Shown: in pieces, positions 12,501-40,050 of the stretch
Position numbering within the stretch: position 1 is the first letter of the stretch
Layout: each line of letters starts with the position of its first letter
Assembly: GCF_009708005.2 (NCBI RefSeq)
Contig: NZ_CP052757.1
Coordinates: 1,612,001 to 1,676,000, forward strand
Length of the DNA: 64,000 nucleotides
DNA from: Cellulosimicrobium protaetiae
GTDB lineage: Bacteria > Actinomycetota > Actinomycetes > Actinomycetales > Cellulomonadaceae
Reading direction: 5' to 3'
Notes under the pieces: generated by a model
The model's database searches: none
Told to the model about the DNA's origin: nothing
Seen by the model: the letters and a program-made list of their open reading frames with translations, nothing else
Program-made: the position numbers and the translations under genes

Positions 12501-13877
12501 ACCGGTGTCGTGGGCTCGGCGGTGCGCTCGGACGGTACGACCGGCTACGTCCGCGTGCCCGACGCTCCCGTCCTCGACCTGACCACCCGCATGACCGTGG
12601 CAGCCTGGGTCCGCCCGGAGCAGCTCGCGACGCAGTACGTCGTGAAGAAGGCGGCCCAGGGGACGACGGACGGCTACGAGCTGGGTCTGGCGTCGGGCGG
12701 CAAGCCGTTCGTCCGCCTGAACCACGCGTCGTCCGGGGACACGTACCGGGTCGACGCGACGTCGACCTACCCGACGGACGGGACGTGGATGCACCTCGTC
12801 GGGACGTACGACGGTGCTCGCGTGCGGATCTACGTGAACGGCGTCGAGCAGGCGTCGAAGGCAGGTCCTGCGAGCATCGGCACGAACACGCTCCCGCTCG
12901 GCATCGCCGCGGAGTCCAACGGGACGCGACCCACCAAGGGGCGGGTCGACGGCGTCCGCGTCTACGACCGGGCACTCTCGTCCGCCGAGGTCGGGGCGCT
13001 CTACTCGGGCGCAGACGAGTCGACGCCAACGCCGGACCCCACACCGACGCCGGACCCGACGCCGACGCCGGACCCCACACCGACGCCGGACCCGACGCCG
13101 ACGCCGGACCCGACGCCGGATCCCACGCCGACGCCGGATCCCACGCCTGACCCGACGCCGGATCCCACGCCTGACCCGACGCCGGATCCCACGCCTGACC
13201 CGACGCCGACCCCGGATCCCACGCCTGACCCCACGCCCGCGCCGCCTGCGGGGGCGATCGGGGTGTGGGCCTTCGACGAGGGACAGGGGACGGTGGCCGC
13301 CGACACGTCGCCGAACGGCAGTGCGGCGTCCCTGCGCTCGGGAGCGACATGGGCCACCGGTCTGTCCGGCAGCGCGCTGAGCCTCGACGGCGTGGACGAC
13401 TACGCGCGCGTGGACGACAAGGCTGCGTTGCGGCTGTCCGGCCCGATGACCGCCTCGGCATGGGTGCGCCCCGAGCAGGTCGGCACGCAGTACGTCGTGA
13501 AGAAGGCGGCCCAGGGGGTCACCGACGGCTACGAGCTCGGGCTCGCGTCGTCGGGCAAGGCCTTCCTGCGGTTCAACCACGCGTCGTCCGGTGACACCTT
13601 CCGTGTGGACACGACGTCCGCGTACCCGACGGACGGGACGTGGGTGCACCTCGTCGGGACGTTCGACGGGACACGGATGCGCATCTACGTGAACGGCGTG
13701 GAGCAGGCGTCCAAGGCCGGACCGGCGAGCATCGGCACGAGCTCGCTGCGACTCGGGATCGGTGCGGAGTCCGACGGCACGCGTCCGATGAAGGGGCGGA
13801 TCGACGGCGTGCGCCTGTACGACCGCGCTCTGTCCTCCGCCGAGGTCGCGCAGCTGTACGCCGCGCGCGGGCAGTAG
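9561..13877 (+). CDS. Secreted multidomain protein with three LamG-like modules
   Basis: A 1438-residue exported protein. Residues 1-45 form a signal peptide with R-R-R-W before the hydrophobic core, so Tat or Sec export is possible. About 55-170 resembles a pre-peptidase C-terminal/PPC-like beta domain (S-M-W-W-R-W-T-A-P). About 200-550 is a beta-propeller-like stretch. Two cadherin/Big_9-like Ig modules (about 555-640 and 853-940) each precede a LamG/concanavalin-like module (643-845, 945-1148). A Thr-Pro-Asp-Pro linker (about 1154-1229) leads to a third LamG-like module (1232-1438). The LamG modules share Q-Y-V-V-K-K-A and D-G-Y-E-L-G-L-A-S. There is no catalytic signature and no sortase motif. 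Likely role: extracellular glycan binding, perhaps of the polymer made nearby. The ATG at 9561 opens the signal peptide. Bases 9381-9560 upstream hold no gene. Confidence 0.8.
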   Translation: MSQTSPRPERSGIPRRRWAVATAGAVAGALALVGIGTALPGLPGGAGTTQLTDVVGDAEAESVAIGGTVGQEVAANFAPGESGPEGPGATAASMWWRWTAPESGPITFSTHGSELDTLLTVYPRSARNAPVATNDDEGDVRTSSVTFDAVAGDEYLVEVSSKSPDPGLLTLSWQPPAPAAAAAAPEAPATTAITSTGIPLTGNTGEKPQSKLWSAGGTWWAVLASASASPAGTWVWRYDAAAQTWTNVSRISERTDVRADVKVVGDVAHVLLHGPTTTLVSIQRDAATNTYMPWTQRTVPTAVSLPGSETATIDVDSTGRMWVAWDTASQVQVRYSDSPYTAFSSPVTVASGITDDDIAVVTAMPGNKIGVLWSNQSTKRFGFRTHADGASPSTWTADEVPAAGSALPVGGGMADDHLNVALSEDGTLYAAVKTSYDSSSRPVIGLLVRHPNGTWDPLHEVDRIGTRGIVLVDDVTDRLRVVYTRSTELDDILVKETSRLAPDFDGAAETVLDGTWNNATATKSNVPGEVLVMAASASTARAARLAWTPAGAPAVQDSTVSTTAGGSVSGTLAAQAATDDPLTFEIVTPPSSGTLTALNPATGTFTYRAGSTSGADSFTFRAGSGGVWSGTATVSVRVSSADGLVGAWNLDEGQGLVTTDSSGWGGTGSLVGASTWVPGVAGSAVRSDGSTGYVRVPDSAALDLTTRLTVAAWIRPEQRATQYVVKKATQGATDGYELGLASGGKPFLRLNHGASGDTFRVEATSSYPTNGTWMHVVGTYDGTRMRIYVDGVEQASKAGPASIAANALPLGIGAEPNGYRPMKGAVDGVRLYDRALSATEVAVLFQGGSTQPNPAPVAQDLAVSTSLGTAVSGTLAATVPQGTTPRFEVVSPPARGTVALTGTTTGAFTYTPGASAGVDTFTFRVGAGGQWSAPATVRVSVTSPDGLVGAWDLDEGQGPATADASGWANDGALVGNATWATGVVGSAVRSDGTTGYVRVPDAPVLDLTTRMTVAAWVRPEQLATQYVVKKAAQGTTDGYELGLASGGKPFVRLNHASSGDTYRVDATSTYPTDGTWMHLVGTYDGARVRIYVNGVEQASKAGPASIGTNTLPLGIAAESNGTRPTKGRVDGVRVYDRALSSAEVGALYSGADESTPTPDPTPTPDPTPTPDPTPTPDPTPTPDPTPDPTPTPDPTPDPTPDPTPDPTPDPTPDPTPTPDPTPDPTPAPPAGAIGVWAFDEGQGTVAADTSPNGSAASLRSGATWATGLSGSALSLDGVDDYARVDDKAALRLSGPMTASAWVRPEQVGTQYVVKKAAQGVTDGYELGLASSGKAFLRFNHASSGDTFRVDTTSAYPTDGTWVHLVGTFDGTRMRIYVNGVEQASKAGPASIGTSSLRLGIGAESDGTRPMKGRIDGVRLYDRALSSAEVAQLYAARGQ
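11488..13874 (+). repeat. Three near-identical LamG-coding repeats
   Basis: Copies at about 11488-12090, 12397-13000 and 13258-13860, each close to 600 bp, encode LamG-like modules with long runs of identical residues. The first two are each preceded by an Ig-like module, so the unit that duplicated was probably Ig+LamG. The third is preceded by the Pro/Thr linker instead. Confidence 0.8.
13021..13245 (+). repeat. Thr-Pro-Asp-Pro linker-coding tandem repeat
   Basis: About 225 bp of short tandem units (ACGCCGGACCCG-type) encode an extended TPDPTP linker of about 75 residues between LamG modules 2 and 3. It is in frame throughout. This is a linker typical of secreted actinobacterial carbohydrate-active proteins, not a CRISPR or mobile repeat. 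Confidence 0.9.
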
Positions 13878-22176: not shown

Positions 22177-23345
22177 GGGCGGTCCTCCGATCGTGCGGCG
22201 ACGAGCGCCGCCGCGAGGTCGAGGTAGCGACGCGCGACCGCGTCCCAGTCGTGCCGCTCGGCGGTGGCGCGGGCGGCGAGCGCGACGGCGCGGCGCGCCT
22301 CGTCGTCGAGCGCCGCGACGGCGGCGATCCCCGCGCGGACCCCGTCGACGGACCGGTCGACGAGCCAGCCGTTCCGGCCGTCGTCGACGACGTCGGGCGC
22401 GTAGCCGACGGGGGTCGCGACGACCGGCACCCCGCACGCGAGCGCCTCGAGGACGACGAGCGCGTTCGCCTCGTACGCGCTCGGCAGGGCGAGGGCGTCG
22501 GCCGCGCGGAGCCAGGGCCGCGGGTCGGGCACGCGGCCGGCGAGGTGCACGCGGTCGGCGGACCCGAGCCGGGTGACCCGCGCCCGGACGTCGGCGAGCA
22601 TGTCGGGCGTCCCGCCGACCACGCTGACGTGGACCCGGGGCAGGTCCGCGGCGGCGGCGAGCAGGAGGTCGAGCCCCTTGCGGTCGAACTCGTGCCCGAC
22701 GAAGACGACGTGGACGGCCCCCTCGGGGATCCCGACCGCGGCACGGGCCGCCGCGCGCTCGTCGGGAGTCGGCGGGAAGAAGCGGTCCACGTCGACCCCG
22801 TTTCCGATGACGACGGCGCGTGCCCGCAGCCGCGGGTAGGTGGCGCGCAGCGCGTCGCGCTCGGACCGTGTGAGGTTGACGACCACGCGGTGGGCCCGGC
22901 CGCGGTACCGGACGGCGTCGCGCGCCGCCGTGAAGAGGTGCAGGGGGTTGCGGACCATGCGCCACGCGTACCCGCCGCGCGCCCGCATCGCGACCCGCAG
23001 GATGCCGTGGTTGACGTACACGTCGCCCGCGAGGACGTCGTTGTGGCAGATCGCGACGACGGCGTCGCCCGCCCCCTGGGGTGCTCGGCGCTCGCGGGCG
23101 ACCCGGCGTCGCGCGAGGGCCGTCCCCACGGTGGAGAACCACACGACCCGCGCGAGGAGCACGAGCCGCCCCCGGACGCCCGGCCCGGGCTCGGGGAGCC
23201 ACGCCCCCCGCGCGTCGGCGAGCGTGAAGCGCGCGGTCTCGACGCCCGCCCGCTCGAACGCCTCCTCGAGGTGGTGCGCGACGCCGCCCACGCCGCTGCC
23301 GGGCGCGATCTCCGGCGCGATCTGCAGGATCCGCAGGTCTGTCAT
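22173..23345 (-). CDS. GT4-family glycosyltransferase
   Basis: A 390-residue GT-B enzyme. L-Q-I-A-P-E-I-A-P-G-S-G-V-G-G-V-A-H-H-L opens the glycogen-synthase-like acceptor domain. V-I-G-N-G-V-D-V-D-R-F-F-P and F-V-G-H-E-F-D-R-K-G-L-D-L-L follow. S-A-Y-E-A-N-A-L-V-V-L-E-A-L-A-C-G is the donor motif; it has E-A-N-A in place of E-G-F-G, as in the subgroup that includes many Micrococcales enzymes. The ATG at 23345 overlaps the upstream stop by 4 nt (ATGA). It sits directly downstream of the Wzy-like polymerase, so it probably extends the repeat unit that protein polymerises. Confidence 0.85.
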   Translation of the reverse strand: MTDLRILQIAPEIAPGSGVGGVAHHLEEAFERAGVETARFTLADARGAWLPEPGPGVRGRLVLLARVVWFSTVGTALARRRVARERRAPQGAGDAVVAICHNDVLAGDVYVNHGILRVAMRARGGYAWRMVRNPLHLFTAARDAVRYRGRAHRVVVNLTRSERDALRATYPRLRARAVVIGNGVDVDRFFPPTPDERAAARAAVGIPEGAVHVVFVGHEFDRKGLDLLLAAAADLPRVHVSVVGGTPDMLADVRARVTRLGSADRVHLAGRVPDPRPWLRAADALALPSAYEANALVVLEALACGVPVVATPVGYAPDVVDDGRNGWLVDRSVDGVRAGIAAVAALDDEARRAVALAARATAERHDWDAVARRYLDLAAALVAARSEDRP

Positions 23346-24754
23346 CGTTCGGCCATCTCCCGGACGGATCGCAGCTCGTCGAGAGGGAGCTCTCGACCGG
23401 TCTCGTCCCGCAGGTTCTGCCGGGACTCGGCGTACGCCTCCGCGCCGAGGCACACGCCGACGATGACGAACGGCACGGTCACCTGGACGGAGACCCAGAA
23501 CAGGTCGAACTGGCCCTGGACGAAGCGCATCATGAGCATCGAGAACGCGAGCGTGCCGAAGCGCGGGTTGATGCGCCAGAGCACGACCATGCCCCCGAGG
23601 AACAGCGCGAGGAAGCCGACGAGACCGACGATCCCGGCGGACGTCAGCACCTCGAGCTCGACGTTGGGCGGCTGGAAGACGAACTCCGTGACGCCCGCCG
23701 TCCACCAGCGCAGCCCCATCCCGACCCACGGGCTGCGCTGCCAGACGTCGATCGAGTCCGCGTACCAGGTGAGGCGCTGGTTCGCGGAGTTGAACTCGTT
23801 GCCGGACTCGAGCTGCTCCTGCACGGCGAGCACGACGAAGTAGACGGCCGGGACGGCGGCGAGCAGGATGAGCTTGGACCGCTTGCGGTCGGGGTCGCCC
23901 CGCAGCGTGATGAGCATGATGCCGATCGCGAGCCCGATGAGGGCCTGGCGGGCCTGGGCCGCGAGCACCCCGAGCGAGCACAGCCAGAACGCGCCGAGCG
24001 AGAACCACCGCGGCCAGCCGACCCACCACGGTCGCGCGTACGCGGTGAGCGCCGCGAAAGCGAGCACGCACCCGATGAAGTTCTTGTGCATCGCGATCGG
24101 CGAGTCGATGTAGACCGGGCCCGAGATGCCCGCGGCGAGCTGCTGGAGCGCGACGACGCACGTCTGCGCGGCGATCGCGAGGCAGGGCACGAGGAAGAGG
24201 GTCAGCCCGAGCCGTGCGCGCCCGGACCGCCCGACGGCCCAGCCGAGCACGAGCGCCCCGGCGACCGAGAGCCACGCGTGGAACCACTCCACGACGTTCG
24301 CGCTGAACGGGTTGACGATCACGGTGAAGAGCGTCGCGACCTGGTACACGAGCGACAGCCACAGCATGGCCCGCATCGGCCGGGAGAACGGACGTGGCGA
24401 GAAGAAGAGCGCGAACCAGAACGCGCCGAAGAGCGCGAAGTCGCTCAGCGAGAGGTCGACGCCGCCGCCGCCGACGCGCTGGACGACGACGAGCGCGGGC
24501 ATCGCGAGGATCGGGAGCGCGACGGGCTCGTAGGCCGTGAGCCCGACGATCAGCACGAGCAGGGCGCCCCCGACGGCGGCCGTCTGCAGCGCGGGCACCA
24601 CGAACCCGAGCACCGCGAGGAGCGCGACCACGATCGCGCCACCCGCCACCCAGCCCGCCACGGTCCGCGTCCGCGCGAGCGCGGCCCCCCGCACGCGCGG
24701 CGCGCGGTAGAGGACGGGGCGTCGCCGGGGCAGGCGGACGGCGGGCAGGTTCAC
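23342..24754 (-). CDS. Wzy-like O-antigen ligase/polymerase family membrane protein
   Basis: A 470-residue integral membrane protein with about eleven hydrophobic segments and one longer extracytoplasmic loop. The loop (about 320-390) contains N-S-A-N-Q-R-L-T-W-Y-A-D and W-V-G-M-G-L-R-W-W-T-A-G, in the style of the Wzy_C/WaaL family; W-x-G-x-G-x-x-x-W marks many polymerases. It would join lipid-linked repeat units on the outer face of the membrane. The start is GTG 24754, giving a GTGA overlap with the upstream fusion gene. The frame extends far upstream only as a shadow. No Wzx flippase accompanies it in this window. Confidence 0.82.
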   Translation of the reverse strand: MNLPAVRLPRRRPVLYRAPRVRGAALARTRTVAGWVAGGAIVVALLAVLGFVVPALQTAAVGGALLVLIVGLTAYEPVALPILAMPALVVVQRVGGGGVDLSLSDFALFGAFWFALFFSPRPFSRPMRAMLWLSLVYQVATLFTVIVNPFSANVVEWFHAWLSVAGALVLGWAVGRSGRARLGLTLFLVPCLAIAAQTCVVALQQLAAGISGPVYIDSPIAMHKNFIGCVLAFAALTAYARPWWVGWPRWFSLGAFWLCSLGVLAAQARQALIGLAIGIMLITLRGDPDRKRSKLILLAAVPAVYFVVLAVQEQLESGNEFNSANQRLTWYADSIDVWQRSPWVGMGLRWWTAGVTEFVFQPPNVELEVLTSAGIVGLVGFLALFLGGMVVLWRINPRFGTLAFSMLMMRFVQGQFDLFWVSVQVTVPFVIVGVCLGAEAYAESRQNLRDETGRELPLDELRSVREMAER

Positions 24755-26769
24755 AGGGCGGACTCCGCCCGCACCGGACCGGTGAGGTAGAGCCGCAGGC
24801 GGCGCCGGGCGCTCGCCCGGCCCTCGCCCGTCAGCGCGACGGAACGCACGGCCGCGCCGAGCACGGCGCCGACGCGCGCGACCGCCCACCCGGCGCGGCC
24901 GTGGTGCTTGCGCAGGTAGCGCTCCTGCGAGGCGTGGAAGTGCGTCTCGCGCCGGGTCGGGTCGGTGCTGGTCGCGCCACCGAGGTGCGTCGCGCGCGCC
25001 TCCGGCACGACGGCGTGCCGCCAGCCGGCCCGGACGGCGCGGTACGCCCAGTCGGTCTCCTCCGCGTAGAGGAAGAACCGCTCGTCGAGGCCGCCGAGCT
25101 CCTCGACCGCGGCGGCGTCGAGCAGCAGCACCGACCCGATGACGAACGAGCGGTCCGCCGGGGTCCGTCGCAGCCGCGCGAGGCCGACGGCCTCGATCCA
25201 CGTGGCCGCGGGCGAGGGGAACGGCCACACGACCCGGGCGGGCGTCCCCTCGTCGTCGACCTGCTGCGGCCCCACGCTCGCGACCCGGGGGGACGCGTGC
25301 AGCGCTCGGTGCAGGGTCTCGACGTCCTCGGGCGTCACGACGGCGTCCGGGTTGAGCAGCAGGACGTCGGCCCCCGGCGCCTGCCGGTGGGCGAGCGCGT
25401 GGTTCACGCCGGCGGCGAAGCCCCCGTTGCGCCCGGGGTCGAGGTAGCGACCCCCGGCCAGCTCGGTGATCTCCCGGATCTCGGGCAGCGACGAGTTGTC
25501 CACGACCGTGATCGGGTACTTCCCGGCGAGCGGGGCGAGCGCGTCGCGCACCATGGCGGGCGACCCGTAGGCGACGACCACGACCTCGGGCGGCGTGGAC
25601 GCCGACGCGCCGCGCGGCGCCGTCGTGGGGGTGGTTGGTGCCGCGCCCCCGGAGACGGCGGTGGTGTACAGGTCCTCGTAGCGGCGGGCGACCTCGGCCC
25701 AGGAGCACGACGCCGCACGGTCCGCCGCCGCGGCGCGCAGCCGGTCGGCGAGGCCGTCCTCGTCCAGGACGCGCACGAGGGCGGCGCGGAGCGCGTCGGG
25801 GTCGTCGGGCGGCACGAGCAGGCCGGCACCGCCCACGACGTCGGGCAGCGCGCCCGTCCGGCTCGCGACCACGGGGACGCCGCACGCCATCGCCTCGACC
25901 GCGACCCGGCCGAACTGCTCGACCCAGCCCGGCGTCTCGCGCGACGGGACGGCGAGCGCGTCGAGGTCGCGGTAGAAGGCGACGAGGTCGTCGCCGTCGA
26001 GCGCGCCCACGAACCGCACCCGGTCCCCGAGCGGGCGGGCGGCCCGTTCGAGGGAGGCGCGGTCCGGACCCTCCCCGGCGAGGACGAGGTCGAGCCGGTC
26101 GTCGGCCGCGACCGCGGCGAGGAGCGCGTCGACGCCCTTGTGGGACGCGAGCCGCCCGGCGTACCCGACGCGGAGTCGCCTCGGGGTGCGACCCGTGCTG
26201 GGTCCCGGGGGGACGGCGTCGGGTGCGGGGGAGAAGACCGCCGGGTCCACGCCCAGCGGGACGGTCTCGACGCGGCCGCGTGCGCCCTTGGCGCGCACGA
26301 TCCGCCCGGCCTCGTCGTTGCAGACCGACACCGCGGCCGCGCCGCGGAGCGCGCGCGCCTCGAACCACCGGAACGGCCACGGGTAGCGCTTGGCGAGGTT
26401 CTGCGCGGAGTACAGGACGTAGGGCGGGGCCGGGCGGCGACCGAGGAGAGCACGCAGGCGGCGCAGGGCCAGGACCTCCGCCGTCGCGAGCGCGAACGGC
26501 TCCTCGTGCAGGTCGAGGACGTCCCAGTCCTGGCCGAGCGCGCGCCACAGGGGGACGGGGTCGTAGACGAAGAGCGCCGGGTGCGTCCCGAACGTCCGCA
26601 CCCCCCGCACCGGCTCGCCCGGGCGCGGCACGAGCGGGACCGTCGTGCCGCCCTCGTCCCACGCGCGCGCGGACAGGAGCCGCACGTCGAGGCCACGCGC
26701 CCGGAGCGCGCGCTCGCGCTCGCGCCAGGCGTCGACGACGGCGCTGTGCGAGACGCGGAGGACCTTCAT
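24751..26769 (-). CDS. GT4–GT2 fusion glycosyltransferase
   Basis: A 672-residue protein with two different glycosyltransferase folds in one chain. Residues 1-385 form a GT-B/GT4 enzyme: G-Y-A-G-R-L-A-S-H-K-G near 215 and W-V-E-Q-F-G-R-V-A-V-E-A-M-A-C-G as donor motif. A Thr/Pro/Ala linker (about 388-405) leads to a GT-A/GT2 domain (about 408-630). That domain has V-V-V-A-Y-G, V-V-D-N-S-S, N-G-G-F-A-A-G-V-N, L-L-N-P-D-A (the DxD equivalent) and F-F-L-Y-A-E-E-T-D-W, typical of rhamnosyltransferase-like GT2s. It may add two successive sugars. First gene of the five-gene operon. ATG 26769 has no Shine-Dalgarno; a GACAAT hexamer 7 nt upstream suggests a leaderless start. Confidence 0.87.
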   Translation of the reverse strand: MKVLRVSHSAVVDAWRERERALRARGLDVRLLSARAWDEGGTTVPLVPRPGEPVRGVRTFGTHPALFVYDPVPLWRALGQDWDVLDLHEEPFALATAEVLALRRLRALLGRRPAPPYVLYSAQNLAKRYPWPFRWFEARALRGAAAVSVCNDEAGRIVRAKGARGRVETVPLGVDPAVFSPAPDAVPPGPSTGRTPRRLRVGYAGRLASHKGVDALLAAVAADDRLDLVLAGEGPDRASLERAARPLGDRVRFVGALDGDDLVAFYRDLDALAVPSRETPGWVEQFGRVAVEAMACGVPVVASRTGALPDVVGGAGLLVPPDDPDALRAALVRVLDEDGLADRLRAAAADRAASCSWAEVARRYEDLYTTAVSGGAAPTTPTTAPRGASASTPPEVVVVAYGSPAMVRDALAPLAGKYPITVVDNSSLPEIREITELAGGRYLDPGRNGGFAAGVNHALAHRQAPGADVLLLNPDAVVTPEDVETLHRALHASPRVASVGPQQVDDEGTPARVVWPFPSPAATWIEAVGLARLRRTPADRSFVIGSVLLLDAAAVEELGGLDERFFLYAEETDWAYRAVRAGWRHAVVPEARATHLGGATSTDPTRRETHFHASQERYLRKHHGRAGWAVARVGAVLGAAVRSVALTGEGRASARRRLRLYLTGPVRAESAL

Positions 26770-27972: not shown

Positions 27973-28665
27973 TCATCGTTCGCAGCGACGGAGGATCTCC
28001 TCGACGACGCCGGCGGCCAGCAGCGACGCGTCCTGCGCTCGCGTGGTGTCGACGACCAGACCGTCCGGACCCCGGGCGGCGGCGATCCGGCGGTTCCAGC
28101 GCGAACGGAAGACGTGGTTGGCGAGAAGCTCTTCGTCGGTACGGCCCCGGGCGTGAGGCCGACCGTTCGAGCGCATGCGGTCGAGGCGAACCGGGAAGCT
28201 GCACACGACGTTCACGGCCAGGTCCGGCGAGGGCATCGACCGGTAGAGCAGATCCGGTCGTCGCGAGCCCTCGGCGAGGGTCGCGTACCGCTTCAGGGGT
28301 CCCTCGTCGAGGAGGACGATCTGTCCCGCACCGACGTGCGCGTGCAGCTCCCGCGCCTTGGCGATGACGTAGGCGAACGCGCGAGCACGGGGACTCAGCG
28401 CAACTCGTGGATTGACGAGCGCCCAGAGGAGGAAGTCGACGTTCGTGTAGCCCGCCGCGACAGCGCGTGCCCGATCGAGCGAACGATCTCCCGGGTCGAT
28501 GTCGACGAGACGGAACTCGTCCGCCCGCACCTGGAGCGCGCTCACGATGCCGGCGACGAGCGTGGACTTCCCGGCGCAGGAGAGCCCGAAGATCTCGACG
28601 ACCTGGTGGGACCCGCCTCGCTCCGTCGTGCGGCCCGACCGGACACCGCGGCACGGCTTCGTCAT
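27973..28665 (-). CDS. P-loop kinase-like protein
   Basis: A 230-residue protein with a Walker A motif G-L-S-C-A-G-K-S-T (residues 27-35) after a beta strand, and a Walker B-like I-V-L-L-D-E-G-P near residue 115. R-L-D-R-M-R-S-N-G-R-P-H-A-R-G-R-T gives an Arg-rich lid. The overall plan is that of small-molecule kinases (APS-kinase/nucleoside-kinase/thymidylate-kinase-like); the substrate cannot be read. The ATG at 28665 overlaps the stop of the upstream four-module fusion by 4 nt, so the two are translationally coupled and probably act together. Bases 27868-27972 to its 3' side hold no gene and no clear terminator. Confidence 0.7.
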   Translation of the reverse strand: MTKPCRGVRSGRTTERGGSHQVVEIFGLSCAGKSTLVAGIVSALQVRADEFRLVDIDPGDRSLDRARAVAAGYTNVDFLLWALVNPRVALSPRARAFAYVIAKARELHAHVGAGQIVLLDEGPLKRYATLAEGSRRPDLLYRSMPSPDLAVNVVCSFPVRLDRMRSNGRPHARGRTDEELLANHVFRSRWNRRIAAARGPDGLVVDTTRAQDASLLAAGVVEEILRRCER

Positions 28666-30962
28666 GAGGACCGGCCCGCAGACCGTGCCCGCCACCGTGC
28701 CCAGAGCGTGTAGCGCCACAGGATCGTGCCCTTGGCGCCCCGTGCGGCACCGTAGGCGCGTCGCGCGAGCCCCGTCGCCCGCACGCGAGGCACGCCGACG
28801 AGGCTCCGAGCACGATGACGCCGGCGGTGCGAGCGCTGCTCCTGCTCCGAGCCGTCGAGCAGCACCGCGAGCGGCATCCCCGTGTACGGCAGCCAGCGCT
28901 TGTCGTACGACATGTCGCCGACAGGGCGGTCCGGTGCGAAGCCAGGCGCCACGTCGACGAAGGTCGCGCTCCGCTCGAGCGGCGGCGGGTCGCCCTCGTA
29001 GCGGTACATGAACTCGAAGTCGACGATCCGGAGACCGAGCGCACGGTCGACGACGAAGTTCTGGGGCTTCGCGTCGACGAGGTCGTACCCGAGCTCGTGG
29101 AGACGGCGGAGCACCACGACCATCTGGCGCAGGACCGGGAGCGGGACGAGACGCGGGCTCCTCGGCGTGTCGAGAGGACCGAGGACGTCGTCGTAGAACG
29201 GGCACGTGAACCAGTTCGGCCCGGAGTCCAGGACGGGCGGGACAGCGTCCACGAGGCCGGAGAGCTCGCGCATCGCCCAGACCTCGCGCTCCATGAAGCG
29301 CAGGAAACCGCGGGCGAACGTCTTGCGCACGACGGGGCCGTCCGAGCCGGCGACGATCTCGACGCGGGCTCGCCGCCCGCGGCTCAGCGTCCGGAGCACC
29401 GAGACGTCGGTCCGGAGCTCCGCGCGGCGCTCGTCCACGTCGGCACGGATCCTCTCCACGGCGTCCGGGACCGCGACCTCGAGGTACTCCCAGGCCTCCT
29501 CCTCGTTGTCGGACGAGTGGATCGGGTTGAACGCACCGTCGCCGTCGGTCCGCGCCTCGATCGCGCGCCGGACCCGTTGCTTCGCGACGACCACCTCGGC
29601 GTTGGTGAGGTGCGGGTAGCGGCCCTGGAGGTCGGGGCCGGGCGGGTCGGGGTCGTGGTGGAGCGCGGCGACGACGACGACCGGGTCCCCACCGCTCACC
29701 GGGAACGGCCCCTGCCCCCAGTTGCCGCCGCGCAGGCTCCGCGCCGTGCGGGCGCGCGCCTCGTCGTCCAGCTCGATCACCTCGACGACGTCGAACCCGA
29801 CGTGCTCGAGCTCGTCCAGGACGTCCGCCGTCGGCAGCGTGGCGAGCGTGCGTCGGCGGACGAGGAAGACGGTGAGCTCCGAGTCCTCGCGCGGGACACC
29901 CGTGCTCGTGCCGAGAGCCGCCTCGATCCACGGGTTGGAGGGCGCGAAGCGACGCAGCGCGTCCAACGGCGGCCGCCAGCCCACCGCGGCGAGGTAGTCG
30001 TCGACGTCCTCGAGCGTGCGCATCGTGGAGGCGCCGAGGGGCGCGGCCAGCCGGGCGACCTCCGCCGGGTAGTCGTGCTCGGGGTCCGGGTCCGTGCGGC
30101 CCAGGAGCACGGAGGGGAACCCAGAGGACGGACCCTTGTGGTAGACGGCGTGGTAGGCGAGCGAACGCAGGTGGTCCTCCGGGGCCGGCACGAGGAACCC
30201 GCTCGTGTGCACCACCGCCCGGTCGAGGAGCCCCGTCGCGAGCGGGGGAGGGTAGTAGGCCGCGCCCTGGAAGTCCGAGTGGTCCAGCCCGGAGGCGCTG
30301 TAGAGGTCGACGGGCAGGACCCCGGGCTCCGACTCGAGGAGAGCGCGGAGCGCGTCGGTGTCGTCGTCCGCGACGAGGACGTCGAGGTCCTCTCCCGGCG
30401 CGATGTCGGGCAACGTCTCGAACCAGCGGAGCACGGCATACCGCAGCCCCGCCTCCTTGAGGCGCTCCGCCAGGCCGGCGGGCCCCCAGACGGGGGAGAA
30501 GTAGGTCCGCGGCGCGGGCTCGCGATGCTGCGGGACCTCGTAGACGTCGAGGCGGATCCCGTCGCACACGACGTGGCCCTGGTCACGGAGCCGCCCGATC
30601 GTCCGGCCCGCGAGCGCGGCGGCCCGGCGCTCGACGTCTTGCGCGCCGGTGCTCCGCTCGACGACGACCTGGCCGACGTGGTGGAGGTCGCGGTGCGCCC
30701 ACAGGGCCCGTGCCCACCGACCACGGAGGACGAGCACGTCGGTGCTGTTGCGGATCGCCTGGTCAGGCGACGTCAGCGGGTGGACGCGGTGCGCGAGGTC
30801 GTCGCCGACGTCCGAGCGGACCGCCGCCAGGTGCTCGGGCGGGACGAGCCCCAGGTAGCGGCTGGTGAGCCCGGACCGTTCGAGGGCACGCGCGAGCACC
30901 CCGTCCGTGGCCCCGATCTCGAGGACACGCGCACCGGGTGGCACGACAGACGCGAGATCCAC
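28662..30962 (-). CDS. Four-module fusion: methyltransferase-like, nucleotidyltransferase-like, NDK-like and kinase-like
   Basis: A 766-residue cytosolic protein whose architecture I do not recognise. Residues 1-140 show a truncated SAM-methyltransferase-like start (V-L-E-I-G-A-T-D-G, 13-21). About 155-345 resembles a nucleotidyltransferase fold, with E-D-L-D-V-L-V (191-197) and a third Asp at 219. About 362-500 resembles nucleoside diphosphate kinase: a beta-alpha start, then N-P-I-H-S-S-D-N with His482 where NDK has its phospho-His in N-V-I-H-G-S-D-S. About 530-690 is protein-kinase-like: K547 in V-V-R-K-T, catalytic Asp630/Lys632/Asn635 in Y-D-L-V-D-A-K-P-Q-N, and Asp648 in V-D-F-E. The GTG at 30962 lies 6 nt after TAGGGT, suggesting a leaderless start. 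The role is perhaps phosphorylation or nucleotidylation of a glycan precursor; this is inference. Confidence 0.7.
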   Translation of the reverse strand: MDLASVVPPGARVLEIGATDGVLARALERSGLTSRYLGLVPPEHLAAVRSDVGDDLAHRVHPLTSPDQAIRNSTDVLVLRGRWARALWAHRDLHHVGQVVVERSTGAQDVERRAAALAGRTIGRLRDQGHVVCDGIRLDVYEVPQHREPAPRTYFSPVWGPAGLAERLKEAGLRYAVLRWFETLPDIAPGEDLDVLVADDDTDALRALLESEPGVLPVDLYSASGLDHSDFQGAAYYPPPLATGLLDRAVVHTSGFLVPAPEDHLRSLAYHAVYHKGPSSGFPSVLLGRTDPDPEHDYPAEVARLAAPLGASTMRTLEDVDDYLAAVGWRPPLDALRRFAPSNPWIEAALGTSTGVPREDSELTVFLVRRRTLATLPTADVLDELEHVGFDVVEVIELDDEARARTARSLRGGNWGQGPFPVSGGDPVVVVAALHHDPDPPGPDLQGRYPHLTNAEVVVAKQRVRRAIEARTDGDGAFNPIHSSDNEEEAWEYLEVAVPDAVERIRADVDERRAELRTDVSVLRTLSRGRRARVEIVAGSDGPVVRKTFARGFLRFMEREVWAMRELSGLVDAVPPVLDSGPNWFTCPFYDDVLGPLDTPRSPRLVPLPVLRQMVVVLRRLHELGYDLVDAKPQNFVVDRALGLRIVDFEFMYRYEGDPPPLERSATFVDVAPGFAPDRPVGDMSYDKRWLPYTGMPLAVLLDGSEQEQRSHRRRHRARSLVGVPRVRATGLARRAYGAARGAKGTILWRYTLWARWRARSAGRSS

Positions 30963-31089: not shown

Positions 31090-31134
31090 CGGCGGGTCGT
31101 GGACGACCCCGCGATCCCGGACGAGGAGAGGCGC

Positions 31135-32052
31135 ATGGAGGACGCTCCCCGTCGGGCTGACGACCTGCCGAGAGTCACGGTCATCATCCCGGTGTACAAC
31201 GACGTCGAGCGTCTGAGGCTGTGCCTCGACGCCCTCGCTCAGCAGGACTACCCGGCCGACCGGCTGGACGTCGTCGTGGTCGACAACGCGTCGACCGTCG
31301 ACCTGCGCCCGGCGCTCCCCGACGACGACCGGTTCGTCATGGTCCGTGAGCTGCGGAAGGGGTCGTACGCGGCACGCAACGCCGGGCTCGAGGTCGCGAC
31401 GGGCGAGGTGCTCGCCTTCACGGACGCGGACTGTCGACCCTGGCGGGACTGGCTGAGCACCGCGGTCGCCATGCTGAAGGCGCCCGGCGCACCCGACGCG
31501 GTCGGCGGACGGATCCGGCTGGTGTTCCGGGACGGCCCGGAGCCCACGACGGGACCCGAGCTGTACGAGTCGGTCCACGGGTTCGACCAGGAGCGCTTCG
31601 TCACGACGTTCCACTTCGCCGCGACCGCGAACCTCGTCGCGACGTCCGAGGCGGTCCGCGGCGTCGGTGGCTTCGACCCGGCGCTCCAGTCCGGAGGGGA
31701 CGACGACTTCGGTCACCGGTTGGCAGCGAGCGGCCGCCGCCTCGCCTACGCGCCGGACGCGGTCGTCGACCACCCCTCCCGGCCGTCGTGGTCGGAGCTC
31801 ACCACCAAGTCGGTCCGCATCGCCAAGGGGATGGCGGACCTCAGCGCGTCGGGACCGTTGCGGGAGGCCGGGCGTGCCGCGGTGGGCGAGCTTCGTGCCG
31901 GGACGTCCGTCTGGCTGACCATCTGGCGCAAGCCGTGGCCGACGACGCCGCGGGGAAGGGCCGGCTACGCCGCGGCACTGAGCTGGGTGAGCGTCATCCG
32001 GCTGGCGACCTGGACGCCGCGGCTGGTCCGTCGGTCCCTGCGCCGCGGCTGA
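31135..32052 (+). CDS. GT2-family glycosyltransferase
   Basis: A 305-residue GT-A-fold enzyme. T-V-I-I-P-V-Y-N-D opens it (about 22-30), then V-V-V-D-N-A-S-T, Y-A-A-R-N-A-G-L-E, and the metal-binding F-T-D-A-D-C-R-P. G-G-F-D-P-A-L-Q-S-G-G-D-D-D-F-G carries the catalytic-base region. The ATG at 31135 is preferred because GAGGAGAGG lies 3 nt upstream. An in-frame GTG at 31099, 9 nt after the -10, would add 12 residues and is an alternative. Monocistronic, convergent with the next gene (15-nt gap). Confidence 0.86.
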   Translation: MEDAPRRADDLPRVTVIIPVYNDVERLRLCLDALAQQDYPADRLDVVVVDNASTVDLRPALPDDDRFVMVRELRKGSYAARNAGLEVATGEVLAFTDADCRPWRDWLSTAVAMLKAPGAPDAVGGRIRLVFRDGPEPTTGPELYESVHGFDQERFVTTFHFAATANLVATSEAVRGVGGFDPALQSGGDDDFGHRLAASGRRLAYAPDAVVDHPSRPSWSELTTKSVRIAKGMADLSASGPLREAGRAAVGELRAGTSVWLTIWRKPWPTTPRGRAGYAAALSWVSVIRLATWTPRLVRRSLRRG

Positions 32053-37159: not shown

Positions 37160-37998
37160 GGCTCGCCTCCCGGCGGCTCGGGGACGGTCACGAGACGGAA
37201 CCAGTCGCGCCGACGCAGGGGGGAGGTCAGGACTGCGCGCCGCGGGTTGCGGGACCGCGCGACCCAGGACTCGTAGACGTCCGGCCGGGAGTAGTGCGCG
37301 GTGTGGCCGGACCATCCGAACTTCTTGCGCATCGCCTCCGGCGTCCGGACCCAGGAGAAGTGGAGCACCGCGTCGCCGGGATCGACGACCTCGTGGACGA
37401 TCTCGTCGTGGCGGTGGCTCGGGTCGGTGTTCCAGGGGCGCAGGTCGACCCGGTAGAGCGGAGCGTCCGTCTGGCGCGCATGGGTGAGGGTCGTGCCGGC
37501 GCGTACGGCGAGCGGTCCGGGGTAGGACGCGACGGGCCGGCCGAACCGGCTGCTCGCCTCGAGGTACCGTCCGGGCGCGACACGCGAGTACAACCATCGT
37601 GCGGGGTAGTCCAGCCCGGACGCGCCGGCGGCCTCGGCCCGCTCGAGCGACGCGAGGAAGGCGGCGGGGGAGAGCATCACCTCGTCGGTGTCGAGCTGGA
37701 GCACCCAGTCGGCACCCTCCGAGGCCTCGTCGAGCGCGACCTGCCGCTGGAACGTGTCGTTGTCGAGCGGGTGCTCGTCGAGCCGTGCGAAACGTCCTGG
37801 CGCGTGCACGCACTTGCCGTCGCGGTCGACCTCCTTGGCGATCGCGAGGCATTCGTCGACGGGGATCGGGGTGCCGGTCCAGGAGGTCGACGTCTCGTCG
37901 TACGACAGGACGATCCGGTCGACGTGGTCGTAGTAGGCGCGCAGGCTCGCCGCGAGGAAGCTCGGGTCGGCCAGCAGCACGTACGCGGTGAGGCGCAT
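37156..37998 (-). CDS. GT2-like glycosyltransferase (GT-A fold)
   Basis: A 280-residue protein resembling the 'glycosyl transferase family 2' subgroup often found next to Wzm/Wzt. The N-terminus L-T-A-Y-V-L-L-A-D-P-S-F and Y-Y-D-H-V-D-R-I-V-L-S-Y-D-E lacks the classical V-V-D-D-G-S motif. W-V-L-Q-L-D-T-D-E-V provides the DxD metal site near residue 105. H-R-H-D-E-I-V-H and H-F-S-W-V-R-T-P-E occupy the C-terminal part. ATG 37998 shares one base with the upstream permease stop (TGATG). The exact family is less certain than for its neighbours. Confidence 0.75.
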   Translation of the reverse strand: MRLTAYVLLADPSFLAASLRAYYDHVDRIVLSYDETSTSWTGTPIPVDECLAIAKEVDRDGKCVHAPGRFARLDEHPLDNDTFQRQVALDEASEGADWVLQLDTDEVMLSPAAFLASLERAEAAGASGLDYPARWLYSRVAPGRYLEASSRFGRPVASYPGPLAVRAGTTLTHARQTDAPLYRVDLRPWNTDPSHRHDEIVHEVVDPGDAVLHFSWVRTPEAMRKKFGWSGHTAHYSRPDVYESWVARSRNPRRAVLTSPLRRRDWFRLVTVPEPPGGEP

Positions 37999-38834
37999 CA
38001 GATGAAGTCCGCGAACTCGCGCTCGTTCTTCTGGAAGACGAGCGTCCCGACCAGCAGGATGAGCGGAGCGGCGACGACGAGCGCGACGACCTGCCACGCG
38101 ACCGGCGCCTCGGTGCCGAGCAGGGACCAGCGGAAGCACTCGAGGAACCACGTGATCGGGTTGATGTCGAACAGCCAGCGCAGGTTCGCGGGGACCTCCG
38201 AGAGCGCGTACGCCACGGGGCTCGCGTAGAGCAGGATCTGCACGAGCCACGGCAGGACGTAGCCGACGTCGCGGTACTTGACCATGTACGCGGCGGCGGC
38301 GAGACCGATGCCGGTCCCGATCATGAGGACGAGGACGATCCAGACGGGGAGGAGGAGGACGGGCCAACCCGGGTTGATGCCGTACACGAACAGCAGCACG
38401 ATCGCCAGGACGAGCGCGACGAGGAAGTCGACGACCACCGACGCGAGGCTCGAGATCGGGACGAGCAGCCGCGGGAAGAACACCTTCTGCACCAGGGACT
38501 GGTTGCCGACCATCGACCCGGACGCCTTGCCGAGCGACCCGTTGAAGAGGTTCCACGCGAGCATGCCGGCGAGCGTGAAGAGGAAGTAGGGGATGCGATC
38601 GTCGCCGGTCGAGAGGTCGGCGATCTGGCCGAACACGACGGTGAAGACGCCCGCGCTCACGAGCGGCTGGGCGATGACCCACGTGACGCCGAAGATCGTC
38701 TGCCGGTAGCGCACGATGATGTCGCGCTGGGCGAGCCGCACCGCTACCTCACGCGCGCCCCACAGCTCGCGCAACGACGGCAGGTTGAGGCGCCCGGGGG
38801 GCGCGATGACGGTGCGCTGGACGGTGTGCTCCAC
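37998..38834 (-). CDS. wzm: ABC-2 type polysaccharide export permease
   Basis: A 278-residue permease with six predicted TM helices and the family landmarks: an N-terminal amphipathic R-D-I-I-V-R-Y-R-Q-T-I-F-G, W-V-I-A-Q-P-L, F-F-P-R-L-L-V-P, A-A-A-Y-M-V-K-Y-R-D-V and N-P-I-T-W-F-L-E. It exports a completed lipid-linked polysaccharide or wall teichoic-type polymer across the membrane together with the ATPase encoded just upstream. GTG 38834 starts 1 nt after the wzt stop. Length and topology are normal for Wzm/TagG. Confidence 0.92.
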   Translation of the reverse strand: MEHTVQRTVIAPPGRLNLPSLRELWGAREVAVRLAQRDIIVRYRQTIFGVTWVIAQPLVSAGVFTVVFGQIADLSTGDDRIPYFLFTLAGMLAWNLFNGSLGKASGSMVGNQSLVQKVFFPRLLVPISSLASVVVDFLVALVLAIVLLFVYGINPGWPVLLLPVWIVLVLMIGTGIGLAAAAYMVKYRDVGYVLPWLVQILLYASPVAYALSEVPANLRWLFDINPITWFLECFRWSLLGTEAPVAWQVVALVVAAPLILLVGTLVFQKNEREFADFI

Positions 38835-38835
38835 G

Positions 38836-40050
38836 TCAGACCCCCTCGTAGTCGAAGTTCACGAAGACCATGCCCTTCTCGGTGCTCGACGCCTCGGTGA
38901 ACTCCGGGTACGGGAGGTCGGGCAGCACCTCGAAGCGCCACGCGCCCTCCCACGCGTCCAGGACCCCCGCCTGGCACGCGTACACGTCGACGGTGTACTG
39001 GCCGGGCTTGAGCCACAGGTCGCGGACCACGAGGCGGCCCTTCTGCGGCTTCTCCGGGTCGAACCACCTGCCCACGAGGCGGGAGTCGCACTGCGCGATG
39101 ACGGTGCCCTGGTCGTTGTTGATGTGCATCGAGACGAAGTAGGTGCCGACGAGCTTCTTGCTCGCGGGCGCCTCGAATTCCACGACGACGTCCTGCGAGG
39201 ACTTGACGAACTCGTCCTCCATGCGGACCGAGGAGAGCCGGACCTTGCCGTTCCCGGGGCGTGCCTTGGGGTCGGACTGCGCGGCCGCGAAGCTCTCGAA
39301 GCTGTCCCGGTACGCCTGGAGCGTGCCCTCGACGGTGCCCGAGTACTTCAGCGTGCCCCGGTCGAGCAGCACGGCGGACGTGCACAGCGCCTGGACGGTC
39401 TGGAGCTGGTGGCTCACGTAGAGCACCGTGCGGCCACCCTGCGCGGCCTCGCGCATCTTCTGGATCGAACGGCGCTGGAACTCGGCGTCACCCACGGCCA
39501 GCACCTCGTCGATCGCGAGGATCTCGGTGTCGAGGTGGGCCGCGACGGAGAAGGCGAGGCGCACGTACATTCCGGACGAGTAGCGCTTGACGGGCGTCGC
39601 GAGGAACTTCTCGATCCCGGAGAACGCGACGATCTCGTCGTAGCGCGCGTTGATCTCCTTGCGCGTCATGCCGAGGATCGCGCCGTTGAGGTAGATGTTC
39701 TCCTTGCCGGTGAGCTCCGGGTGGAACCCCGTCCCGACCTCCAGGAGCGACCCGACGCGACCGTTGAGCTCGATGCGCCCCCGCGTGGGCGCGGTGACGC
39801 GCGTGAGGATCTTCAGCAGCGTCGACTTGCCCGCACCGTTGCGTCCGACGATCCCGAGCGCCTCACCCTTCGGGACCTCGAACGACACGTCGTCGAGCGC
39901 GTCGAACAGCGTGTACTTCTGCTTGCCGGTCGACCGGACCCACTGGATCGCCGCCGCGGCCGCCGTCGAGGGACGCTCGCCGAACGCACCGAGCCGGTAG
40001 GTCTTGCCCAGCCCGGCGACGCGGATCGCGGGTTCCGTGGTCGCCTGCAC
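38836..40050 (-). CDS. wzt: Polysaccharide ABC exporter ATPase with C-terminal recognition domain
   Basis: A 404-residue protein. Residues 1-250 are the nucleotide-binding domain: Walker A G-R-N-G-A-G-K-S-T, signature Y-S-S-G-M-Y-V-R-L, Walker B I-L-A-I-D-E-V-L-A-V-G-D and switch His in Y-V-S-H-Q. Residues 270-404 form a Wzt-C-like beta-sandwich, the part that in ABC O-antigen systems recognises the modified end of the polymer. This implies a capped or terminally modified glycan. GTG 40050 lies 6 nt after TATCTT with no Shine-Dalgarno, so the operon's first gene looks leaderless. It leads the eight-gene operon down to 32068. Confidence 0.93.
   Translation of the reverse strand: MQATTEPAIRVAGLGKTYRLGAFGERPSTAAAAAIQWVRSTGKQKYTLFDALDDVSFEVPKGEALGIVGRNGAGKSTLLKILTRVTAPTRGRIELNGRVGSLLEVGTGFHPELTGKENIYLNGAILGMTRKEINARYDEIVAFSGIEKFLATPVKRYSSGMYVRLAFSVAAHLDTEILAIDEVLAVGDAEFQRRSIQKMREAAQGGRTVLYVSHQLQTVQALCTSAVLLDRGTLKYSGTVEGTLQAYRDSFESFAAAQSDPKARPGNGKVRLSSVRMEDEFVKSSQDVVVEFEAPASKKLVGTYFVSMHINNDQGTVIAQCDSRLVGRWFDPEKPQKGRLVVRDLWLKPGQYTVDVYACQAGVLDAWEGAWRFEVLPDLPYPEFTEASSTEKGMVFVNFDYEGV

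What the first reader, a model, noticed from the sequence alone, without database searches (positions are those of the whole stretch)
28662..30962. Four-module fusion with NDK-like and protein-kinase-like domains
One protein carries a methyltransferase-like start, a nucleotidyltransferase-like D-x-D domain, an NDK-like domain keeping a phospho-His context (N-P-I-H-S-S-D-N) and a kinase-like domain with Lys547, Asp630, Lys632, Asn635 and Asp648. I know of no described enzyme with this order. Its place in a glycan locus suggests activation or phosphorylation of a sugar or lipid intermediate.
Basis: partly seen in the sequence, partly recalled or inferred. Interest (0 to 1): 0.8.

Follow-up and report, generated by a model that had tools for sequence, protein, structure and literature searches.

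The report
Fused phosphotransfer enzyme in glycan locus
An actinobacterium carries, inside a surface-sugar gene cluster, one protein that joins a probable nucleotide-transferring domain, a relative of nucleoside diphosphate kinase and a protein-kinase-like domain; close relatives carry the same parts as two neighbouring genes instead, which points to one shared and apparently undescribed phosphate-transfer job in making the sugar coat.

Summary
In detail: ORF 28662-30962(-), 766 aa, has the stated order and residues. The kinase module is firm at superfamily level (profile E 3e-8 to solved kinases). The NDK-like module is well supported: an AlphaFold model from two sequences, no templates (pLDDT 61), retrieves named NDKs in 48 of the 50 listed PDB matches (best E 1.5e-4), and the His is invariant. 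It is divergent: no Pfam NDK hit, K12 is Arg, HGSD is HSSD. The nucleotidyltransferase module rests on sub-threshold hits to PF14907. The 'methyltransferase' start has a degenerate SAM loop and is probably not catalytic.

New here: relatives replace the fused gene, in the same glycan locus, by two adjacent genes: an NDK-like+nucleotidyltransferase protein (order reversed) and a stand-alone kinase. Of 17 same-genus genomes 6 are fused, 5 split, 6 neither, 0 both. So nucleotidyltransferase + NDK-like + kinase looks like the functional unit.

Best guess (0.42): it phosphorylates and then nucleotidylates (or glycosylates) a lipid-linked glycan or precursor, the NDK-like domain relaying phosphate. 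Substrate and chemistry are untested. My paper searches found no description.

The parts
28662..30962 (-). Four-module protein P0001, 766 aa (GTG start)
   Evidence: homologues; dN/dS
30519..30962 (-). Residues 1-148: methyltransferase-like (Rossmann-type) start, SAM loop degenerate, probably non-catalytic
   Evidence: Methyltransf_23 E 0.2; motif-I conservation; absent in L032/G050
29898..30515 (-). Residues 150-355: nucleotidyltransferase-like domain, D192/D194/D199, H264, H271, K276
   Evidence: PF14907 hit in 7 of 11 members, best E 0.0019; first member 15.4 bits against a cut-off of 31.2; no PDB profile hit; 12 of 12 conserved
29448..29891 (-). Residues 358-505: NDK-like domain
   Evidence: model of residues 355-507, pLDDT 60.9; 48 of 50 listed Foldseek PDB matches are named NDKs; hhalign
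29517..29519 (-). Codon of H482, counterpart of the NDK phospho-histidine
   Evidence: 13 of 13 fused rows; HSS kept in 7 of 7 split-family rows
28893..29405 (-). Residues 520-690: protein-kinase-like domain (K547, E560, D630, K632, N635, D648)
   Evidence: profile vs PDB best E 3.1e-8, 934 sequences at E<=1, the 60 listed are kinases or kinase-containing proteins; NCBIfam LanL 1.6e-4
28665..28844 (-). Residues 707-766: Arg-rich tail, mostly with a W-A-R-x-R-A motif, possible membrane anchor
   Evidence: 13-21 K/R against 0-3 D/E in 13 of 13 rows with a C-terminus; membrane role inferred
27973..28620 (-). Neighbour gene: P-loop kinase-like protein, about 215 aa
   Evidence: weak AAA_33/AAA_18 hits; tblastn found it only in the own-genome loci among those held
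31099..32052 (+). Neighbour gene: GT2 glycosyltransferase (w21); 49-86% identical copies lie by the fused gene in 9 of 10 fused loci tested
   Evidence: Pfam; tblastn
37998..38834 (-). Wzm-like ABC permease of the glycan locus
   Evidence: beside the Wzt gene; 65-88% relatives in other loci; no Pfam run on this protein, name inferred
38836..40050 (-). Wzt-like ATPase with C-terminal glycan-binding domain
   Evidence: ABC_tran 7.5e-21; Wzt_C 30.4 bits, exactly its cut-off
23342..24754 (-). Wzy_C (O-antigen ligase family) membrane protein of the same locus
   Evidence: 2.8e-14

Best explanation
The protein is a cytoplasmic, probably membrane-docked phosphotransfer machine of a surface-glycan locus. 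Shown: a eukaryotic-type kinase domain with a full catalytic set; a divergent NDK-fold domain (by model) with an invariant His; a conserved D-x-D domain of probable nucleotidyltransferase type; and exchange of the fused gene for a two-gene split form. Inferred: the kinase phosphorylates a hydroxyl of a lipid-linked glycan, its terminal sugar or a precursor; the nucleotidyltransferase-like domain then adds a nucleotidyl (or, as seen with PsmN, a hexosyl) group on or next to that phosphate; the NDK-like domain shuttles a phosphate through H482, either recharging NDP to NTP on site or passing phosphate to the product; the MT-like start and the Arg-rich tail act as docking parts.
For: Kinase profile to PDB E 3e-8. 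NDK: model matches named NDKs in 48 of 50 listed hits; PDB search with profile A6 lists two sequences below E 10, one of them NDK 5x00 with H482 on the catalytic His (E 0.81); hhalign 32.3 against a maximum of 19.2 in 200 column shuffles. NTase: PF14907 in 7 of 11 members. Split form: NDK-like+NTase protein with a stand-alone kinase beside it in 6 of 7 split loci, the seventh ending at a contig end; its two domains match the fused ones at P 2e-8 and 1e-10. Exclusive: of 46 genomes searched with the NTase profile 18 have one match and none has two. A GT2 gene (w21) lies by the fused gene in 9 of 10 fused loci tested. Precedent: WbdD, a eukaryotic-type kinase that phosphorylates a glycan end (PMC3482155, abstract and section 7).
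Against: No substrate or activity evidence. NTase fold not shown (0 PDB profile hits). NDK sequence support sits mainly in the His motif: with the motif masked the score falls to 19.0, which the best of 100 shuffles equals; with the motif held in place 1 of 150 shuffles reaches the observed score. The split-form NDK-like domain alone is not significant against NDK (P 0.17; 0.074). PDB search with profile A2 listed two non-NDK chains and no NDK, and a non-NDK (yiiL) ranks first with A6. K12 is Arg, HGSD is HSSD, and the split form lacks N115, so NDK catalysis may be altered or lost. The full-length model failed (pLDDT 33.9). 6 of 17 same-genus genomes have neither form (two of the 17 are under 90% complete: G001 75%, G014 83%).
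Confidence: 0.42

Rival explanations
1. WbdD-like chain terminator: it caps the non-reducing end of the polymer with a phosphate-based group that the carbohydrate-binding domain of Wzt recognises for export.
For: Kinase in a locus with a Wzm/Wzt pair; Wzt_C at its cut-off; full-length Wzt in 13 of 13 genomes with the fused or split form among the 19 searched; MT-kinase terminators and caps read by Wzt are known (PMC3482155 abstract; PMC11231755 passages; PMC9445017 abstract).
Against: Distant homologues sit beside flippases (L032, L038) or beside or near single-chain ABC exporters (L037, L035; L033 about 6 kb away). 3 of 6 same-genus genomes with neither form have a full-length, more divergent Wzt. 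MT loop degenerate.
Confidence: 0.2
2. Precursor activation: kinase plus nucleotidyltransferase make a nucleotide-activated sugar or polyol (logic of HldE or FKP, recalled), with the NDK-like domain supplying the NTP.
For: Module content; conserved catalytic residues; glycosyltransferase-rich or glycan-export neighbourhoods.
Against: The NTase-like domain resembles PF14907, and no sugar-nucleotide pyrophosphorylase family was listed for the protein. A membrane-docking tail would not be expected.
Confidence: 0.18
3. Regulator: a Ser/Thr or His protein kinase that controls glycosyltransferases or export.
For: Closest sequence matches of the kinase part are mostly protein kinases; NDKs can act as protein-histidine kinases (PMC13256974, search listing).
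Against: Patchy distribution tied to glycan loci; an NTase-like part in every homologue not cut by a contig end; eukaryotic-type kinases in glycan loci can act on glycans (PMC3482155).
Confidence: 0.12
4. Anti-phage or toxin-type module.
For: Kinase and nucleotidyltransferase domains are common in such systems (recalled).
Against: No PADLOC hit at E<=1 for the fused protein, the split protein or its kinase; stable place in a glycan locus.
Confidence: 0.02

Closest known systems
WbdD of E. coli O9a (MT-kinase O-antigen terminator)
   Same: Eukaryotic-type kinase in a glycan export locus, joined to a methyltransferase domain in one chain (PMC3482155 abstract, section 7)
   Different: WbdD has an active MT and a coiled-coil; here the MT loop is degenerate, NTase-like and NDK-like modules lie between, and homologues occur with other exporters
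MT-kinase terminator ORF6 of K. pneumoniae O7
   Same: Shows that MT-kinase terminators arise with unrelated kinases (PMC11231755 passages); the 559-577-aa MT+kinase-like protein near the fused gene in L027-L031 and L036 recalls it
   Different: No NTase or NDK part reported in the passages seen
Nucleoside diphosphate kinase (PF00334)
   Same: Predicted fold, invariant His, R105 and N115 counterparts
   Different: No Pfam hit, K12 to Arg, HGSD to HSSD, embedded in a fusion
PF14907 nucleotidyltransferases, and PsmK/PsmN of the lasso peptide pseudomycoidin
   Same: Kinase paired with a putative nucleotidyltransferase; PsmN is needed for hexoses on the phosphate made by PsmK (PMC9266682 passages)
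   Different: That PsmN belongs to PF14907 is recalled, not tested; peptide substrate; separate genes; no NDK part mentioned in the passages seen
DYNAMO1, a local GTP-supplying NDK-like protein
   Same: Idea of on-site NTP supply (PMC6219506 abstract)
   Different: Eukaryotic 17-kDa protein, not a fusion

Membership tests
Nucleoside diphosphate kinase | NDK fold | tested here: met
   Foldseek: 48 of 50 listed PDB matches are named NDKs (the other two are chains of ciliary complexes not named in the table), prob 0.98-1.00, TMt 0.42-0.62; model pLDDT only 60.9
Nucleoside diphosphate kinase | Catalytic His in N-x-x-H-G-S-D | tested here: inconclusive
   His 13 of 13, Asn 13 of 13, Asp 13 of 13, but Gly is Ser in 13 of 13
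Nucleoside diphosphate kinase | K12 of the KPD motif (numbering recalled) | tested here: not met
   Arg in 13 of 13 at the aligned position
Nucleoside diphosphate kinase | Match to Pfam PF00334 | tested here: not met
   0 of 13 members of A6 at E<=10
Nucleoside diphosphate kinase | NTP:NDP phosphotransfer activity | not testable with these tools
   needs an enzyme assay
Protein-kinase-like superfamily | VAIK Lys, alpha-C Glu, D-x-K-x-x-N, DFG Asp | tested here: met
   K547, E560, D630, N635, D648 13 of 13; K632 11 of 13; profile E 3e-8
Protein-kinase-like superfamily | Pfam Pkinase gathering score | tested here: not met
   12.9 bits against 31.7
PF14907 nucleotidyltransferase | Match over the curated cut-off | tested here: not met
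   first member 15.4 bits against 31.2; 7 of 11 members hit at E<=10, best E 0.0019; bits of the other members not shown
PF14907 nucleotidyltransferase | Acidic pair D-x-D | tested here: met
   12 of 12 fused; E-x-D in the 3 split rows of A4
Class I SAM methyltransferase | Motif I E/D-x-G-x-G-x-G | tested here: not met
   position 19 never Gly, Gly21 5 of 11
WbdD-type terminator | Kinase plus active methyltransferase | tested here: not met
   kinase yes, MT loop degenerate; activity itself not testable here
WbdD-type terminator | C-terminal coiled-coil ruler | not tested
   no coiled-coil predictor was run
WbdD-type terminator | Wzt with glycan-binding domain in the locus | tested here: inconclusive
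   full-length Wzt in 13 of 13 searched genomes with either form, but other exporters by distant homologues

The most novel reading that the evidence does not exclude
A new enzyme class of actinobacterial glycan loci in which a divergent NDK domain works as a phospho-His relay inside a kinase-nucleotidyltransferase machine, charging or handing over phosphate directly on a lipid-linked polysaccharide; it exists as two interchangeable builds, one fused and one split.
Probability: 0.3. Interest if true: 0.85.

Novelty: new variant of a known kind. Interest (0 to 1): 0.6.

Why it matters
NDK is a textbook housekeeping enzyme; a diverged NDK-fold domain wired to a kinase and a probable nucleotidyltransferase in a polysaccharide locus would be a new use of phospho-His chemistry and a new route to phosphate-decorated or capped surface glycans in Gram-positive actinobacteria. 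The fused and split builds in close relatives make the idea directly testable by complementation.

Tried and rejected
Plain domain searches gave little: Pfam and NCBIfam on the whole protein, PDB by phmmer (the 60 of 82 matches shown all lie in the kinase region, best E 0.058), plasmids for the fused protein and plasmids and phages for the split protein: no match. PHROGs gave one weak kinase hit and one at E 0.42. PADLOC gave nothing for the fused protein, the split protein or its kinase, and a weak hit (mad8, 2.8e-4) for the P-loop neighbour. Scans with the NDK-like profile over 394 class and 326 phylum genomes (at most 10-12 candidates scored per genome) found no further architecture: apart from the fused homologues, matches were at E 0.002 or worse and I treat them as noise without looking at each. 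Two weak Pfam-NDK hits in G005 and G008 (E about 0.85, one stop inside each) were put aside: no NDK-like protein showed among the ORFs printed. The full-length structure model was useless. Profile comparison of the MT-like start with the neighbouring MT+kinase protein covered only 27 columns. Fused and stand-alone kinases align only over 55 columns around the catalytic loop (P 0.006), so they may be separate kinase families recruited to the same job.

Considered and rejected: chance motif (the His is kept in 13 of 13 fused and 7 of 7 split rows although the split rows of A6 are 19-26% identical to the first fused row in this domain); pseudogene (dN/dS 0.24); canonical NDK; plain WbdD member.

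Rows dropped before counts: A2 used 9 of 13 fused rows plus 1 split row; A4 8 of 12 fused plus 3 of 7 split; A5 9 of 13 fused; A6 9 of 13 fused plus 4 of 7 split; A9 5 of the 6 stand-alone kinases; mostly close duplicates were left out. In one search one row (L030) was lost by my own trimming error; it was restored. Full-length searches with A1 scored only 2 candidates per genome, so their counts are lower bounds.
Full report
WHAT IS THERE. The window lies at G000:C1:1612001-1676000 of a 4.78-Mb genome. A same-genus relative, G012, has a contig of the same length and a match at the same place as Cellulosimicrobium sp. Marseille-Q4280, so the host is a Cellulosimicrobium or very near it (inference). 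It is the only match in its own genome at E<=1. Selection against the 79%-identical relative is purifying (dN/dS about 0.24, simple counting method).

HOMOLOGUES. The fused protein was found in 8 of 59 relatives searched, own genome included, in 3 of 394 genomes drawn from the class (11 had some match; the other 8 touch the kinase part only) and in 5 of 396 from the order (6 had some match; G655 touches the NTase part only; two of the five, G000 and G050, were already counted). Together that is 13 genomes and 14 alignment rows, one homologue being split over two contig ends and another (G566) cut by one. It is rare and patchy, which suggests horizontal spread (inference). One homologue (G050) has no MT-like start.

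MODULE BY MODULE. Kinase: profile A5 against PDB gives 934 sequences at E<=1, best 3.1e-8; the 60 listed are kinases or kinase-containing proteins. The catalytic set is kept in 13 of 13 rows except K632 (11 of 13). NTase-like: 7 of 11 members hit PF14907, best E 0.0019; the first member is far below the cut-off; a PDB profile search gave 0 hits; D192, D194, D199, H264, H271 and K276 are kept in 12 of 12. MT-like: Gly17 is kept in 11 of 11 but position 19 is never Gly and Gly21 is Gly in 5 of 11, so SAM binding is doubtful. C-terminal tail: 13-21 Arg/Lys against 0-3 Asp/Glu in the last 60 residues in 13 of 13 rows, with a conserved Trp in 11 of 13; membrane docking is an inference, and the split protein's tail is less basic.

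THE NDK QUESTION. Against: none of 13 members hits Pfam NDK; the PDB profile search with A2 lists two non-NDK chains only. For: hhalign of the fused-family domain with 17 canonical NDKs (18 loci fetched, one not retrieved by the script) gives score 27.2, P 8e-4, in register over 117 columns, above 200 of 200 column shuffles (maximum 24.6); reversed alignment and the other three modules score 13-19. With the split family added (20 rows) and 40 NDKs, score 32.3, P 1e-4, shuffle maximum 19.2 of 200; reversed alignment and other modules score 14-17. Most of this rests on the His motif: masked, the score is 19.0, equal to the best of 100 masked shuffles; with the motif kept in place, 1 of 150 shuffles reaches 32.3 (in one search masking cut 27.2 to 13.4). 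A PDB search with profile A6 lists two sequences below E 10: yiiL (0.69) and NDK 5x00 (0.81), the latter aligned over profile positions 27-143 with H482 on the catalytic His. The independent line is stronger: an AlphaFold2 model of residues 355-507 from the window and L009 alone, no templates, pLDDT 60.9, pTM 0.60, gave 786 Foldseek matches at E<=10 and 11 at E<=0.001; of the 50 listed, 48 are named NDKs, best E 1.5e-4, and two are chains of ciliary complexes that the table does not name (NDK-domain proteins by recall). In the viral library the first and third hits are named NDK or NDK-like, but none reaches E 0.001. I take the NDK fold as about 0.9 likely. From the alignment (NDK numbering recalled): K12=R369, R88=R448, T94=T453, R105=R465, N115=N479, H118=H482, S120=S484. 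K12 to Arg and Gly119 to Ser make it a non-canonical NDK whose chemistry may differ.

THE SPLIT FORM. A partial hit in G655 led to a 452-aa protein with the NDK-like domain first and the NTase-like domain second, in the same kind of glycan locus. Relatives occur in G003, G004, G009, G014, G016 and G1076. The split domains match the fused ones at P 2e-8 (NDK-like) and 1e-10 (NTase-like). In 6 of these 7 loci the next gene is a kinase-like protein (261-310 aa as called; the other five are 65-88% identical to the one of G009) with HGDLQPHN and DFE motifs; in the seventh (G014) the contig ends at the split gene. Of 17 same-genus genomes, own included, 6 have the fused gene, 5 the split gene, 6 neither and none both; G001 (neither) and G014 (split) are only 75% and 83% complete. 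A sensitive NTase-profile search of 46 genomes found 18 with one match each and none with two; in one of the others, G566, the homologue is cut at a contig end before the NTase part. This fused-or-split pattern is the main new evidence that NTase + NDK-like + kinase act together.

SURROUNDINGS. By my reading of the sequences (names recalled) the locus lies between glmU/prs/rplY/pth-like genes and an enolase gene. Pfam shows glycosyltransferases, a Wzy_C protein, a polysaccharide deacetylase, a GNAT acetyltransferase, a sub-threshold Wzz hit, and an ABC ATPase with a Wzt_C domain at the cut-off score. A GT2 gene like w21 (49-86% identity) lies by the fused gene in 9 of 10 fused loci tested (L009, L027-L031, L033, L036, L037; not L032) and not, at that level, in the split loci. 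Full-length Wzt is present in 13 of 13 genomes with either form among the 19 searched; of 6 same-genus genomes with neither, 3 have a full-length Wzt at 64-70% identity, 2 a match to the ATPase half only and 1 none at E<=1e-60. The fetched Wzt loci of those three show a different gene set without the module. Outside the family the fused gene shares its locus with Wzm/Wzt (L036), with a single-chain ABC exporter (adjacent in L035 and L037, about 6 kb away in L033) or with a flippase (adjacent in L032 and L038). So the module follows glycan loci, not one exporter. Next to the fused gene, or one GT2 gene further, there is often another phosphotransferase-like gene of changing type: a P-loop kinase here; a 385-aa protein in L009 that looks kinase-like by eye but has no Pfam hit; and a 559-577-aa methyltransferase plus phosphotransferase-like protein in L027-L031 and L036.

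HOW IT PROBABLY WORKS. Eukaryotic-type kinases can act on glycans: WbdD phosphorylates the terminal mannose of the O9a polymer and then methylates the phosphate (PMC3482155, abstract and section 7). A kinase and a putative nucleotidyltransferase act in sequence in pseudomycoidin, where PsmN is responsible for one or two hexoses on the phosphate made by PsmK, though the review notes other readings (PMC9266682, passages). An NDK-like protein can supply NTP on site (DYNAMO1, PMC6219506, abstract). By analogy I propose: the kinase phosphorylates a glycan or precursor hydroxyl; the NTase-like domain extends that phosphate; the NDK-like domain relays phosphate by H482. Every step of chemistry is inferred. 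A cap read by Wzt (PMC9445017, abstract, for the principle) is possible (0.2) but not required by the wider distribution.

NOVELTY. Paper searches of the held open-access library (listings only) showed no description of an NDK-like, nucleotidyltransferase and kinase fusion in glycan loci; subscription papers are mostly not held, so absence is not proof. The parts are known folds; the combination, the divergent NDK-like domain and the fused/split exchange appear new.

Noticed in passing
L028:11825-13528, L029:11806-13509, L027:13611-15302, L031:6315-7994, L030:13712-15445, L036:5849-7579: A 559-577-aa protein joining a methyltransferase and a TCAD9/phosphotransferase-like kinase lies one GT2 gene away from the fused gene; it resembles the module order of methylphosphate terminators.
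   Followed up: partly
L102-L107, L039, L036, L033, L038; window 9561-13877: A large protein of the w7 family (LamG and Ig-like domains in the window copy) lies next to the split genes (62-66% identity) and in the loci of some fused ones (L036 66%, L033 33%, L038 30%); possible glycan-binding partner or glycan acceptor.
   Followed up: partly
window 27973-28620: P-loop kinase-like gene right after the fused gene; tblastn found it only in the own-genome loci among those held.
   Followed up: partly
L009:10325-11482; L103:5326-6414; L106:5947-7047: Proteins of 362-385 aa that look kinase-like by eye (P-S-G-x-D ... N-L then I-D-L), in fused and split loci; no Pfam hit for the two scanned.
   Followed up: no
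BFVD A0A1V0SAX2 and A0A481Z0W0: Weak fold matches (E about 0.04-0.05) of the NDK-like model to a giant-virus glycosyltransferase and an uncharacterised giant-virus protein; possibly NDK-like domains in other glycan enzymes.
   Followed up: no
window 24751-26769: A 672-aa protein that looks like two glycosyltransferases in one chain (GT4-like then GT2-like, by eye; not scanned with Pfam).
   Followed up: no
window 31099-32052; L033:7378-8205 and eight other loci: The GT2 gene w21 goes with the fused gene even in a different family of the class (G099, 49% identity), so it may be its direct partner.
   Followed up: partly
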